DNA from: an uncultured SAR116 cluster alpha proteobacterium
GTDB lineage: Bacteria > Pseudomonadota > Alphaproteobacteria > Puniceispirillales > Marisalimonadaceae
Length of the DNA stretch: 37,777 nt
Reading direction: 5' to 3'
Assembly: GCA_902578805.1 (NCBI GenBank)
Contig: CACHEH010000011.1
Coordinates: 1 to 37,777, forward strand
Part shown: positions 16,247 through 34,027 of the stretch, in pieces
Layout of the letters: each line of letters opens with the position of its first letter
Numbering within the stretch: the stretch's first letter is position 1
Made by a program: the position numbers and the translations under genes
Notes under the pieces: generated by a model
The model's database searches: none
The model's input: only the letters and a program-made list of their open reading frames with translations
Told to the model about the DNA's origin: nothing

Positions 16247-17347
16247 TTACTGAATTAACTTTTTAAACCTACTTGTTTTTGGACTAATTTTATCTAGTCC
16301 TAAATCTTTTATTTGATTAAATAATTCTTCTTGTTTTCTTGAGAGGCCTACTGGCGTTTCGACATTAATTTGTACATATTGATCACCTCTAGTCCCCCCT
16401 CGCAACCCAGGCATACCTTTTCCTTTCATCCTTAATCGTGTACCACTTTGTGTTCCTGCTACTAAATTCATTTTTGCCTTAGAACCGTCAATGCATGGAA
16501 CCTGAATAGAGTTGCCTAATACAGCATCTATAAAATGAACTGGTACCTCAATAAAAGTGTCTTTTCCGTCTCTCTGGAAAAAGGAATGATCTTTTATATC
16601 AATAAAAATGTACAAGTCACCAGCATTAGATCCTCTAGCGCCGGCTTCACCTTCACCAGAAAGTCGAATGCGTGTTCCATTATCCACACCAGCTGGAACA
16701 TTTACTGATAGTTTTTTATTTTTATTAACCCTACCCTGACCTTTACAATGTCTGCATGGGTCACCAATAATTTCTCCAGAACCAGAACAAGCAGCACAAG
16801 TTCTTTCTATTGTGAAAAATCCTTGTTGCGCTCTAACTTTTCCATAACCACCACATTGACCACATTGTTTTGGTTGAGAACCTTTAGCAGCACCAGAACC
16901 ATTACAAGAATCACATTTTGTTGGAACTGTTAAGGAAATTTCAACCTGATCACCAGAAAAAGCTTGTTCAAGAGTAACTGATAAATCATACCTTAAATCT
17001 GATCCTGTAGTAGCAGATCTTCTTCTTGAGTCGCTACCCATACCAAACATATCTTCAAATATATCTGAAAATCCCCCAGCTCCAAAACCTGAAAATCCTC
17101 CACCTGGATTACCACCGGTACCTTGAGAGAAAGCTGAATGCCCGTACTGATCATAAGCAGCTTTTTTTTGAGGGTCTTTTAAAATCTCATAGGATTCTGA
17201 AATTTCTTTAAATTTTTCTTCTGCTTTTTTATCACCAGGATTTCTATCAGGATGATATTTCATGGCTAATTTACGGTACGAAGATTTAATTTCACTATCT
17301 GATGCAGATTTAGATAAACCAAGTATATCGTAATAATCACGTGCCAT
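16247..17347 (-). CDS. dnaJ: Chaperone protein DnaJ
   Basis: A 366-residue type I J-protein that stimulates DnaK ATPase and delivers unfolded clients. The J domain (1-68) has HPD at 32-34, followed by a Gly/Phe-rich linker (about 74-105). The zinc region has four CxxCxGxG repeats, with cysteine pairs at 145/148, 162/165, 184/187 and 198/201, all intact. C-terminal beta domains run to about 345. AAGGT nine bases before the ATG supports the start. It is 31 bp downstream of dnaK. Confidence 0.98.
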   Translation of the reverse strand: MARDYYDILGLSKSASDSEIKSSYRKLAMKYHPDRNPGDKKAEEKFKEISESYEILKDPQKKAAYDQYGHSAFSQGTGGNPGGGFSGFGAGGFSDIFEDMFGMGSDSRRRSATTGSDLRYDLSVTLEQAFSGDQVEISLTVPTKCDSCNGSGAAKGSQPKQCGQCGGYGKVRAQQGFFTIERTCAACSGSGEIIGDPCRHCKGQGRVNKNKKLSVNVPAGVDNGTRIRLSGEGEAGARGSNAGDLYIFIDIKDHSFFQRDGKDTFIEVPVHFIDAVLGNSIQVPCIDGSKAKMNLVAGTQSGTRLRMKGKGMPGLRGGTRGDQYVQINVETPVGLSRKQEELFNQIKDLGLDKISPKTSRFKKLIQ

Positions 17348-29487: not shown

Positions 29488-30147
29488 TCACGGTTTCCAT
29501 TTAAGCCAGTTATATATAAATTTTTGACCCGAATTACCACTCTTTTCTGGATGAAATTGCACACCTATGTAATTGTCTTTACCTATAATTGCAGGTATTC
29601 TTTGGTTGTAAATTGTATTAGCAAGTATTTCGTTTGTACTTTTACTCTCAAGAGCGTATGAGTGTACAAAATAATATTGTTCTTTTTCATTAATATTGTC
29701 AAAAATTGGATGGTTTCTATCCTCAATCTGTAAATTATTCCAACCAATGTGTGGTATTTTATAACTTCTTCCAAGATAATCTAAACCATTTTTTTTTAAT
29801 TTTTTGAAACAACCATCAAGCCAGCCAAAACCTGAAGTTCTTTTTTTTTCAAGACTATAATCAACCATTAGTTGCATTCCAACACAAATGCCTAAAAATT
29901 TTTTTCTTTTGTTAAGAACTTGGTTTGTTAATAAATCTAATAATCCAATTATTTTTAACAATCCTTTTTTGCAATCAGGAAAAGAACCAACACCAGGCAA
30001 AATTAAATGATCAGCCTTTGAGATTATGCTTAGGTTATTTGTAACTATAATTTTAAAATTTAAATTGTTGACTGCAACAGTATTTTTAAATGCATTTTCT
30101 ACAGACCTTAAATTGCCAGATCCATAGTCTATTATAACAAGATTCAT
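29488..30147 (-). CDS. hisH: Imidazole glycerol phosphate synthase, glutamine amidotransferase subunit
   Basis: A 219-residue class I glutaminase that supplies ammonia to HisF. IDYGSGNLRSVENAF is the N-terminal signature, the nucleophile is Cys88 in LGICVGMQL, and the catalytic pair is His199/Glu201 in VQFHPEKSG. Length is slightly above the usual 200-215. It begins 1 bp after the hisB stop. Confidence 0.97.
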   Translation of the reverse strand: MNLVIIDYGSGNLRSVENAFKNTVAVNNLNFKIIVTNNLSIISKADHLILPGVGSFPDCKKGLLKIIGLLDLLTNQVLNKRKKFLGICVGMQLMVDYSLEKKRTSGFGWLDGCFKKLKKNGLDYLGRSYKIPHIGWNNLQIEDRNHPIFDNINEKEQYYFVHSYALESKSTNEILANTIYNQRIPAIIGKDNYIGVQFHPEKSGNSGQKFIYNWLKWKP

Positions 30148-30769: not shown

Positions 30770-30778
30770 TTATCCACA
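30770..30778 (+). other. Isolated perfect DnaA box upstream of hisB
   Basis: TTATCCACA in the 16-bp smr-hisB gap, 4 bp before the hisB start codon on the opposite strand. A single 9-mer can occur by chance in this composition, so function is uncertain. Confidence 0.35.
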
Positions 30779-32025: not shown

Positions 32026-32451
32026 ATGAACAATGTAAATGAAAATAAAATTGATGAAATAGAAGTTATAAGACATTACATAAAAGATCTTTCTTTTGAG
32101 AATCCTCTAGATATTAATCAAAATAAATCTATTCAAAATGGTAATTACGAAATTTCTTCAAATATGAACGTTATATATGAACCCTATAATAATAATTTTT
32201 TTAGTTTAATTATTAAAATTACCCTTGACTGTTCATTGAAAAAGGAAAACATCAAATTGTCTCACCTGGAACTTGATTACTTTAGTTTTTTTAAAACATT
32301 TAATGAAAGTCTTGATCAAAAGTCATTAACCGAAAATGGTCTTAAGCTTATATTTCCTTATGCAAAAACTATAATTGAAGAAATTACTAATAAAGGTGGT
32401 AATATACCTATTTCTCTAGAAGACATAGATTTTAAACTTGTAGAAAATTAA
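32026..32451 (+). CDS. secB: Protein-export chaperone SecB
   Basis: A 141-residue tetrameric chaperone that keeps preproteins unfolded and hands them to SecA. It is recognised by IRHYIKDLSFENPLDI near the N-terminus and the C-terminal KLIFPYAKTIIEEITNKGGNIPISLEDIDF, matching the 'LFPFAR..I...T..GGFPP..L..IDF' pattern. The middle is diverged: the usual hydrophobic strand ending in YAGLF reads YFSFF here. Location beside dnaQ and coaE is typical of alphaproteobacteria. Its stop overlaps the dnaQ stop by 4 bp, tail to tail. Confidence 0.9.
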   Translation: MNNVNENKIDEIEVIRHYIKDLSFENPLDINQNKSIQNGNYEISSNMNVIYEPYNNNFFSLIIKITLDCSLKKENIKLSHLELDYFSFFKTFNESLDQKSLTENGLKLIFPYAKTIIEEITNKGGNIPISLEDIDFKLVEN

Positions 32452-33158
32452 ACAATTAATTTTGTCCATATGTTATTCTTTATATTTTTTATGCTCTCAA
32501 GATGAGATGATAAATCTTTTTGATTTATGTCAACGCGCTTTATGTCCTTTTTTTTTAGATTTTGATAATACTCATCTATATTAAACGTAGAATCTTGTTT
32601 TTCTTGACTTTGTGATTCATCATAAGTAACAAATTCCAACTTAGACTGTTTTCCGCCAATCAATTCAAGATAGACAGAAGCTAATAATTTAGCATCTTTC
32701 AGGGCTCCATGTATATTTCTATCTGACAAATCGATATTATATTTCCTACATAGGGAGTCTAAACTGACAGCTTGACCTAAAAATCTTTTTTTAGCCAATT
32801 GCAAAGTATCTATTACACGATCTTCATTTAAAGCACTAATTTTACATCTCTCTAGCTCTGAGTTTATGAATCCAACATCAAACGTAGCATTATGGATGAT
32901 AATTTTACTATCCGATAAAAATTCAAGAAAATCGTCAACTATTTCATAGAATTTAGGCTTATTAATCAAAAACTGACTGCTTAAACCATGCACTTTTTCA
33001 GCCGCATAGTCTGAATCTCTTTCTGGATTGAGGTAATGGTGAAAATAATTACCTGTTGGAACATGATTTTCCAGTTCAACTATACCAATTTCAACTATTC
33101 TATGACCAATTTCAAAATTTAGACCCGTGGTTTCAGTGTCCAGTACTAGTTCTCTCAT
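32448..33158 (-). CDS. dnaQ: DNA polymerase III epsilon subunit (3'-5' proofreading exonuclease)
   Basis: A 236-residue DEDDh exonuclease. Metal and catalytic residues are Asp7/Glu9 (LDTETTG), Asp94 (HNATFDVGF), His150 and Asp155 (NIHGALKDAKLLA). The C-terminal ~60 residues are polar and would hold the alpha-subunit binding tail. The start is fixed because the catalytic DTETTG begins six residues in; AGGTG lies six bases upstream. It therefore truly overlaps the coaE end by 26 bp. Confidence 0.96.
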   Translation of the reverse strand: MRELVLDTETTGLNFEIGHRIVEIGIVELENHVPTGNYFHHYLNPERDSDYAAEKVHGLSSQFLINKPKFYEIVDDFLEFLSDSKIIIHNATFDVGFINSELERCKISALNEDRVIDTLQLAKKRFLGQAVSLDSLCRKYNIDLSDRNIHGALKDAKLLASVYLELIGGKQSKLEFVTYDESQSQEKQDSTFNIDEYYQNLKKKDIKRVDINQKDLSSHLESIKNIKNNIWTKLIV

Positions 33159-33768
33159 GTTTAGTCACCTTTCTGCTAATTATTATTCCAAATAAATATA
33201 TTAAAACAATAAAAAAACTAATTAATTTCCCATATGATGTGCTTATTAAAAAAGGTCGCTTTTTAATTTTTCTTTCAAAGCTCCATTGACTACTATTTAT
33301 GAGATTAAATTTCTCTTCGGTCATATCCTGTCTTTTTAAAACCCTTTTTTTTTGTATCTTTTTGGACGAGTTTACCAGAAATACGTAGTGACATTCTTTA
33401 TCTGTACGAGTTTCATATAATAGTGGTATGTCCAATCCCACAAAATAACATTTATTGTTTTTTTTAATGAAACACTTTCTTTTCCTTTTAACTATAGGAT
33501 GTATAATTTTTTCAAGAATTTTCCTTTCATGCTTTCTTTCAAATATTATTTTACTAAGCAAAACTTTATTAATTCTTTTTTCCTGTTCAGATAAAACTAC
33601 TGTTTCAGGCCAAATATCTCCAATTTTTTCTTTAACATCCTTGTTTTTTTCCAATATGTTTCTAACTTCTTTATCTGAATCAAATACAGGTATATTTAAT
33701 AACCTAAGCATAGAGGAAATAGTTGTTTTCCCCATCCCAATTGAGCCTGTTATGCCAATAAGTATCAT
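33133..33768 (-). CDS. coaE: Dephospho-CoA kinase
   Basis: A 211-residue P-loop kinase for the last step of coenzyme A synthesis. Walker A is GITGSIGMGKTT at 5-16, with FDSDKEVR at 29-36, the HP pair in IIHPIVKRKRK at 88-98, LDIPLLYE at 112-119 and RQDMTEEKF at 146-154. The C-terminal helix after STSYGK is unusually hydrophobic (about 182-198), resembling a membrane segment. It then ends in a basic tail that overlaps dnaQ. It is the first leftward gene from the proposed origin. Confidence 0.92.
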   Translation of the reverse strand: MILIGITGSIGMGKTTISSMLRLLNIPVFDSDKEVRNILEKNKDVKEKIGDIWPETVVLSEQEKRINKVLLSKIIFERKHERKILEKIIHPIVKRKRKCFIKKNNKCYFVGLDIPLLYETRTDKECHYVFLVNSSKKIQKKRVLKRQDMTEEKFNLINSSQWSFERKIKKRPFLISTSYGKLISFFIVLIYLFGIIISRKVTKHERTSTGH

Positions 33769-33800
33769 AATTAAATATTTTTAGTTGTTAATAAAATGTT

Positions 33801-33860
33801 TATAAACTTATTTTTGCTTTATTTTTTCTTTTTTTTTTTTTTTTATTTACATTTATTAAT
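33801..33860. other. T-rich candidate DNA unwinding element
   Basis: About 60 bp with almost no G or C, strongly T-biased on the plus strand, including 16 consecutive T. It adjoins the DnaA-box cluster on the coaE side, where strand opening would be expected. Position is inferred from composition only. Confidence 0.5.
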
Positions 33861-33872
33861 ATCTTAAGAACA

Positions 33873-33881
33873 TGTGGATAT
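33873..33881 (-). other. DnaA box 1 (one mismatch)
   Basis: Minus strand ATATCCACA versus TTATCCACA; the first base differs. Confidence 0.55.
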
Positions 33882-33892
33882 AAATTATATTT

Positions 33893-33901
33893 TGTGAATA
33901 A
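33893..33901 (-). other. DnaA box 2
   Basis: Minus strand TTATTCACA, which fits the classic TTATNCACA definition. Confidence 0.6.
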
Positions 33902-33944
33902 TATCTTTATTCGTTATGTTTATTTAATATTTTTTTTTATAAGA

Positions 33945-33953
33945 TGTGGATAA
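33945..33953 (-). other. DnaA box 3 (perfect)
   Basis: Minus strand TTATCCACA, exact consensus. With box 4 it forms an inverted pair with 10-bp arms and a 17-bp spacer. Confidence 0.75.
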
Positions 33954-33970
33954 ATATTTTATAAACTATA

Positions 33971-33979
33971 TTATCCACA
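33971..33979 (+). other. DnaA box 4 (perfect)
   Basis: Plus strand TTATCCACA, exact consensus, facing box 3; 48 bp before the hemE start. Confidence 0.75.
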
Positions 33980-34027
33980 TAAATACAGAAAACAACAACA
34001 ACAATTATTTTATTATAAGATTTTTTT

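What the first reader, a model, noticed from the sequence alone, without database searches (positions are those of the whole stretch)
33769..34027. Likely chromosomal replication origin between coaE and hemE
Four DnaA boxes (two exact TTATCCACA in inverted orientation, one TTATTCACA, one with a single mismatch) fall within 107 bp, beside a 60-bp T-rich stretch. The gap separates leftward coaE-dnaQ from rightward hemE-hemJ-rho-mnmE. Established knowledge: the origin of Caulobacter and related bacteria adjoins hemE. The chance of two exact boxes this close in AT-rich DNA is low.
Basis: partly seen in the sequence, partly recalled or inferred. Interest (0 to 1): 0.85.

Follow-up and report, generated by a model that had tools for sequence, protein, structure and literature searches.

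The report
Replication origin with altered unwinding repeat

Summary
The coaE-hemE gap (33769-34027) holds two exact and two one-mismatch DnaA boxes in 107 bp; 0 of 2000 shuffles do so. It is the only place in the held genome (70% complete) with three TTATYCACA within 100 bp. The inverted pair is kept in 25 of 27 genus gaps, 0 of 2700 shuffles. In three complete genomes of the order, sampled GC3 skew puts the origin at hemE, the terminus opposite. hemE-adjacent origins are known, so this part is a new member of a known kind.

New: 13 nt right of the + box lies CAACAACAACAA (33993-34004), a C-N-N repeat with the position, spacing and strand of a DnaA-trio (canonically 3'-GAT-5') but no adenine on the strand to be bound. 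In the family, 38 of 40 gaps have three or more such triplets. Similar arrays precede hemE in part of the class (13 of 28 tested). All 34 class DnaAs examined carry Tyr/Phe where B. subtilis Asn187 reads the middle adenine. I propose a relaxed trio, 3'-G[A/T]N-5'; function is inferred, not shown.

The parts
33769..34027 (.). Putative oriC: coaE-hemE intergenic gap, 259 bp, 13.5% GC
   Evidence: conserved in relatives
33873..33881 (-). DnaA box, one mismatch (ATATCCACA); the least conserved of the four: relatives have weaker matches here (e.g. TGTGAATA, TGTTAATA, CTGAATAA as read on +)
33893..33901 (-). DnaA box TTATTCACA; relatives mostly TGTGAATAA or TGTTAATAA (as read on +)
33945..33953 (-). 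DnaA box TTATCCACA, left half of the conserved inverted pair
33971..33979 (+). DnaA box TTATCCACA, right half of the inverted pair; the box from which the trio-like array is spaced
33797..33805 (-). Weak fifth box (TTATAAACA here; TTATCAACA in many relatives)
   Evidence: invariant columns 158-161 of the first row
33853..33861 (+). Degenerate sixth box (TTATTAATA here; TTATCCATA, TTATCCAAA or TTATCCAGA in several relatives)
33980..33992 (.). 13-nt spacer between box and trio-like array
33993..34004 (-). DnaA-trio-like array: CAA x4 on +, so 3'-GTT-5' x4 on the presumed bound (-) strand; contains no adenine on that strand
   Evidence: (C354, C357, C360 invariant)
34005..34027 (.). Stretch of A and T with one G, up to the hemE start; presumed part of the unwinding element
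33811..33850 (.).
33133..33768 (-). coaE (dephospho-CoA kinase)
   Evidence: TIGR00152
32448..33158 (-). dnaQ (DNA polymerase III epsilon)
   Evidence: TIGR01406
34028..35059 (+). hemE (uroporphyrinogen decarboxylase), GTG start
   Evidence: TIGR01464
35069..35509 (+). hemJ
   Evidence: TIGR00701
35534..36793 (+). rho
   Evidence: TIGR00767
36836..37777 (+). mnmE, cut by the contig end

Best explanation
The coaE-hemE gap is the chromosomal origin (oriC) of a low-GC SAR116-cluster alphaproteobacterium. DnaA binds the box cluster, above all the inverted pair 33945-/33971+. From the + box it extends over 13 nt to the right onto the bottom strand of a C-N-N array (33993-34004, 3'-GTT-5' x4), which acts as a relaxed DnaA-trio (3'-G[A/T]N-5' rather than 3'-GAN-5'), and opens the AT-rich DNA up to the hemE start. 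Shown here by sequence: box cluster, its conservation, skew reversal at this locus in relatives, conserved array with near-fixed spacing to the box in the genus. Inferred: that DnaA binds it, that the array is contacted as single strand, that the Tyr/Phe at the B. subtilis Asn187 position explains the relaxed middle base.
For: Origin: cluster beyond chance and unique in the held genome; window cumulative skew is lowest in the 33-35 kb bin; inverted pair at 23-26 bp in 25 of 27 genus gaps, 0 of 2700 shuffles; best-fit origin between stretches at 1788-1810 kb (hemE 1809 kb), 2469-2491 kb (hemE 2490 kb) and 1470-1492 kb (hemE 1490 kb) in the three complete order members sampled, termini opposite; in the one whose dnaA position I have (G082) dnaA lies about 87 kb away and skew does not turn there; SAG contig of 728 kb: corrected GC3 skew -0.050 on one side of the gap (455 genes), +0.029 on the other (211), 0 of 500 permutations. 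Trio-like array: 38 of 40 family gaps have >=3 C[AT][AT] triplets, 36 of 40 >=4, against 1 of 40 with >=3 G triplets; spacer to the + box 10-14 nt, s.d. 0.9, against s.d. 5.0 for the distance to the inferred hemE start, n = 25 genus gaps; 13 nt is also the commonest published spacer (PMC8287927, passages). DnaA residue at B. subtilis 187: Tyr in own; Tyr 30/Phe 4 of 34 class members examined, none aromatic in 26 from other classes of the phylum (A10, Q6, T5, N4, S1).
Against: No marker-frequency, footprint or unwinding data. Own genome is a 60-contig MAG, so its skew could not be tested beyond 37.8 kb. The SAG change point is imprecise (443 kb; bootstrap 5-95% 382-571 kb, 60 resamples; hemE at 495 kb). 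In the complete genomes some stretches have the wrong sign and in G129 the runners-up are close (score 11.9-12.1 against 13.1). The array is among the more stable parts of the gap; the least stable are 33914-33943, 33832-33867 and 33767-33796. The published NAN rule is met somewhere in all 37 family gaps tested, in the window at three other boxes, so canonical placements elsewhere cannot be excluded. With the distant genus g4 included, the spacer s.d. rises to 4.0 (35 gaps), little better than the hemE distance (5.0), because g4 has only weak boxes there. In B. subtilis a middle T impairs trios (PMC10721633, passages). Outside the family the array is weaker: significant in 1 of 4 (f2, as often on the other strand), 10 of 19 (f3), 3 of 5 (f4) and 13 of 28 other class members. 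The DnaA residue difference is one phylogenetic event, only one member of the order (own) was examined, and other classes have Ala, Thr, Gln too, so it is weak as co-variation.
Confidence: 0.65

Rival explanations
1. Ordinary hemE-adjacent alphaproteobacterial oriC, with the DNA opened through a canonical NAN trio elsewhere in the gap (for example leftward from box 33873) or simply through AT-rich DNA; the C-N-N array has some other role or none.
For: The NAN rule is met from boxes 33881- (spacer 10, 3 motifs), 33843+ and 33794- in the window; a '-' strand placement about 110 nt left of the array is met in 23 of 37 family gaps; the lowest stability lies left of the inverted pair.
Against: The rule is met somewhere in 37 of 37 gaps, so it has little power in such DNA; no placement near -110 is listed for the window itself; the C-N-N array is strand-specific, conserved and box-spaced in the genus.
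Confidence: 0.23
2. The C-N-N array is part of the hemE mRNA leader (a CA-rich, unstructured translation enhancer or promoter part), unrelated to replication; the DnaA boxes are still the origin.
For: It lies 34-54 nt before the inferred hemE start on the coding strand in 26 gaps; CA-rich leaders are known to aid translation (recalled, no call).
Against: Spacing is tight to the box (s.d. 0.9) and looser to hemE (s.d. 5.0) in 25 genus gaps (hemE starts inferred from the gap-free match, not annotated); C stays at period 3 while A and T interchange.
Confidence: 0.08
3. The box cluster is a DnaA-regulated promoter or DnaA-titration site, and the origin is elsewhere (for example at dnaA).
For: DnaA boxes also occur as a conserved pair at a promoter region in this genus (nrdJ); divergent promoters are expected in the gap.
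Against: Skew turns at hemE in three complete relatives, and in the one whose dnaA position I have, not at dnaA; only this locus has three close boxes in the own genome.
Confidence: 0.04

Closest known systems
Caulobacter crescentus Cori and the Rickettsia/Wolbachia hemE origins
   Same: Intergenic origin beside hemE, DnaA boxes, AT-rich (PMC1914354, passages)
   Different: Other neighbour is coaE, not COG1806 (Caulobacter, Rickettsia) or COG1253 (Wolbachia); no strict CtrA site (TTAA-N7-TTAA), no IHF consensus and no GANTC in the gap
Bacillus subtilis basal unwinding system (BUS): DnaA-box, spacer, DnaA-trios
   Same: Box-to-repeat order, 13-nt spacer, 3-nt period, strand with G first
   Different: Middle base of the motif is T in all four window triplets instead of the conserved A; boxes inverted rather than tandem; DnaA has Tyr at the Asn187 position
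Thermotoga maritima eTrio
   Same: Trinucleotide repeat in the unwinding element bound by DnaA (PMC10316083, passages)
   Different: TAG repeats with canonical middle A; not an alphaproteobacterium

Membership tests
Bacterial chromosomal oriC | Cluster of DnaA boxes in an AT-rich intergenic region | tested here: met
Bacterial chromosomal oriC | Strand-composition skew changes sign at the locus, with the terminus opposite | tested here: met
   In three sampled complete order relatives, consistent in a 728-kb SAG contig; not testable in the own fragmented genome
Bacterial chromosomal oriC | Replication starts there (marker frequency, two-dimensional gels, autonomous replication) | not testable with these tools
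   No reads or bench data
hemE-type alphaproteobacterial origin (Cori type) | Adjacent to hemE | tested here: met
hemE-type alphaproteobacterial origin (Cori type) | CtrA and IHF binding sites | tested here: not met
   0 strict CtrA, 2 looser matches (TTAA-N7-TTWW), 0 IHF by the consensus of PMC1914354; that paper reports hemE origins with few or no CtrA sites, so this does not exclude a hemE-type origin
DnaA-trio / BUS as published | DnaA box within 16 nt of the repeat | tested here: met
   13 nt
DnaA-trio / BUS as published | At least three motifs with adenine in the middle (3'-NAN-5') | tested here: not met
   Array 33993-34004 has no adenine on the - strand; rule met at the array in 9 of 37 family gaps
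DnaA-trio / BUS as published | DnaA oligomer binds the single strand and unwinds | not testable with these tools
   needs purified DnaA

The most novel reading that the evidence does not exclude
Alphaproteobacteria use a relaxed trio code at the hemE origin, 3'-G[A/T]N-5', read by a DnaA in which an aromatic residue (Tyr/Phe) stands in place of the Asn that in B. subtilis selects the middle adenine. The window is an extreme case, with all-GTT trios and no adenine. This would be the 'deviant DnaA-trio without the middle adenine' that the BUS authors suspected.
Probability: 0.45. Interest if true: 0.7.

Novelty: new variant of a known kind. Interest (0 to 1): 0.5.

Why it matters
It locates the likely replication origin of an uncultured marine lineage, so that read-depth growth estimates and genome ordering can be anchored. 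If the relaxed trio is real, it could account for some of the 15% of origins in which no trio was found in the 2021 survey (PMC8287927), and it gives a natural series, CTA to CAA to CAT, for testing how DnaA recognises single-stranded origin DNA.

Tried and rejected
Raw GC skew on the SAG contig was noisy because of gene orientation; replaced by third-position skew averaged over both gene strands. One fixed inverted-pair pattern in five relatives matched in 1 of 5 genomes, at the origin only, since boxes vary by a base; replaced by position-based comparison. CtrA, IHF and GANTC sites: none by strict consensus. The T-rich tract as the unwinding element: not conserved as such, kept as a rival only through its low stability.

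Errors found and mended: one search read eight minus-strand loci in the wrong orientation (corrected before any count). One search failed in its second half through a script error (redone). Searches took a wrong stretch for L274, whose contig is short upstream; recomputed, it is significant (0.01), so the class count is 13 of 28, not 12. 4.0) and the array's position in a more stable part of the gap had been given too little weight, and trimmed the rivals so that the odds add up.

Rows dropped or not taken: L088 and L103 (contig ends) and L167 (contig end) before it; G027 (fragmentary hemE) not fetched. Of 109 order genomes with a hemE match, 68 gaps entered; of 98 class genomes with a match, 28 outside the order entered. 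Gaps outside the genus were picked by HemE score or convenience, not at random. DnaA residues come from the best-scoring 30 of 192 genomes and 30 of 100, 4 of the latter from the own class. Of four single-contig order genomes G140 was not sampled.

Papers: PMC8287927 passages and its results section; PMC10721633, PMC1914354, PMC10316083, PMC10225481, PMC13220808, PMC5043019 passages only; the 2016 Nature DnaA-trio paper was not held and I know it second-hand. Searched for in this open-access library alone: SAR116 with 'replication origin' and DnaA, 0 papers; DnaA-trio with Alphaproteobacteria, 1 paper, on Epsilonproteobacteria, which names the class in its methods; DnaA-trio with Caulobacter, 16 papers, of which I looked at passages of three and saw no alphaproteobacterial trio there; one search listed 10 of 4,423, none of the ten holding DnaA-trio. 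So 'not in print' is not established.

Full report
What is there. The gap 33769-34027 between coaE (leftward) and hemE (rightward) holds four DnaA boxes within 107 bp exactly as described, in DNA of 13.5% GC. None of 2000 dinucleotide shuffles of the gap has as many exact or one-mismatch boxes. Single boxes are not enriched over the genome (TTATYCACA 31, reversed control 42), but only here do three lie within 100 bp. Gene names are confirmed by curated models.

Whose it is. HemE's 22 nearest loci in named genomes (52-83% identity) are titled SAR116 cluster in 19 cases and as unclassified alpha- or proteobacteria in 3. The own assembly is 1.49 Mb in 60 contigs, 70% complete; the window is G000:C11:1-37777.

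Is it the origin? Conservation: an alignment of the window and 18 relatives' gaps keeps the box positions in register, best for 33893, 33945 and 33971, poorly for 33873, plus two weaker ones near 33797 and 33853. Of 27 genus gaps examined, 25 have an inverted box pair (<=2 mismatches each) 23-26 bp apart and 10-14 nt before the array; 19 of 27 at <=1 mismatch; 0 of 2700 shuffles at either level. Skew: I computed third-codon-position GC skew averaged over genes (ORFs of 100 aa or more) of both orientations, which cancels the coding-strand effect. In three of the four single-contig genomes of the order (G082, G129, G087), sampled with 19-20 stretches of 20 kb each, the best of all two-arc fits puts the origin in the interval that holds hemE and the terminus opposite. 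In G082 dnaA is at 1.721 Mb; stretches on both sides of it are negative, and the sign turns between 1.808 and 1.810 Mb. Some stretches contradict the arcs (1.885 Mb in G082; 1.630 Mb in G087; 0.426, 0.568 and 2.600 Mb in G129), and in G129 the runners-up are close, but no other origin fits better. On a 728-kb contig of a nearer relative the corrected skew is -0.050 on one side of the gap and +0.029 on the other, 0 of 500 permutations, with an imprecise change point. In the window itself cumulative skew is lowest in the 33-35 kb bin. A direct replication measurement is missing. Taken alone I put the origin call at about 0.95; the stated confidence of 0.65 is for the whole explanation with its mechanism.

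In the alignment the columns C354, C357 and C360 of the window row are invariant (33993, 33996, 33999). They belong to a C-N-N array: CAACAACAACAA in the window, CATCATCATCATC or CTACTACTACTAC in relatives. In the last 150 nt before hemE, 38 of 40 gaps of the family have three or more consecutive C[AT][AT] triplets and 36 of 40 have four or more; the same test for G triplets gives 1 of 40. With a second scoring over 300 nt, 32 of 39 family gaps are significant at 0.05 on this strand and 1 of 39 on the other. In the genus the array starts 10-14 nt after the + box (s.d. 0.9 nt, n = 25) while its distance to the inferred hemE start varies more (s.d. 5.0 nt). This is the order, spacing and strand of the DnaA-trio of the basal unwinding system: a box, a spacer with a peak at 10-13 nt, and 3'-GAT-5' repeats (PMC8287927). 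In genus g4 the boxes left of the array are weak, the measured spacer falls to 0 in four gaps, and the family-wide spacer s.d. is 4.0; two g4 gaps and three of four f2 gaps lack a run of three.

How it differs. The published definition demands adenine in the middle of each motif. The window's array is 3'-GTT-5' four times and holds no adenine on that strand. Of the 38 family arrays, 13 have no triplet with the canonical middle base, and 9 of 37 meet the published rule at the array. Triplets in the family are CAA 59, CTA 54, CAT 39, CTT 3. Similar arrays precede hemE elsewhere in the class, some all-CAA (L277, L281), some mostly CTA (L286); 13 of 28 class gaps are significant at 0.05 with the scoring I chose, against 1 of 28 on the other strand. 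In the B. subtilis structure the middle adenine is contacted by Asn187, and a middle T impairs opening (PMC10721633, passages). In own DnaA that residue is Tyr; in 34 class members it is Tyr (30) or Phe (4), in 26 members of other classes never aromatic. The Arg202 to Lys change is not class-specific. This suggests, but does not show, that the class reads a relaxed code 3'-G[A/T]N-5'. The authors of the survey wrote that they suspect deviant trios without the middle adenine.

Doubts. In DNA this AT-rich the NAN rule is met somewhere in every gap tested (37 of 37), so canonical trios elsewhere cannot be ruled out, and the lowest duplex stability lies left of the inverted pair, while the array is among the more stable parts. 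The residue argument is a single evolutionary event. The class sample is not random, and fewer than half of its gaps show the array at 0.05.

Verdict. An ordinary origin in the expected place for its class, well supported, with an unwinding element that departs from the published motif and is worth a direct test.

Noticed in passing
own genome G000:C12:29753-29761 and 29860-29868 (L079 4754-4762 and 4861-4869): Two exact, co-oriented DnaA boxes upstream of nrdJ (vitamin B12-dependent ribonucleotide reductase, NF005736). In 24 of 25 same-genus loci examined (of 34 genomes with a match) both are exact, starting 73-86 and 182-205 nt before the start codon (the 25th, L336, is a short contig). They are kept more strictly than the origin's own boxes. 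In the alignment of 12 the upstream box adjoins a conserved stretch resembling an NrdR box (recalled motif). Suggests DnaA control of dNTP supply, as known for E. coli nrdAB (recalled).
   Followed up: partly
L006 and L016 (the same contigs as L088 and L105) and L103: Three SAR116 contigs end within 300 bp of, or inside, the start of hemE on the origin side, as if the AT-rich origin breaks assemblies.
   Followed up: no
class loci L260, L261, L265, L273, L276, L277, L279, L281, L283, L284, L285, L287: 12 of 28 non-SAR116 alphaproteobacterial gaps have a GANTC site (the CcrM methylation target, recalled) within 75 nt from the start of the best C-N-N array; the window gap has none. No chance control was run.
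   Followed up: partly
window 32026-32451: A secB-like gene scoring far below the NCBIfam SecB cut-offs (64.6 bits against 143) although above the Pfam SecB cut-off (64.5 against 26): a diverged SecB.
   Followed up: no
window 16680-16688 and 30770-30778: Two further exact TTATCCACA in the window, single boxes, one just upstream of the hisB start; not tested for conservation.
   Followed up: no
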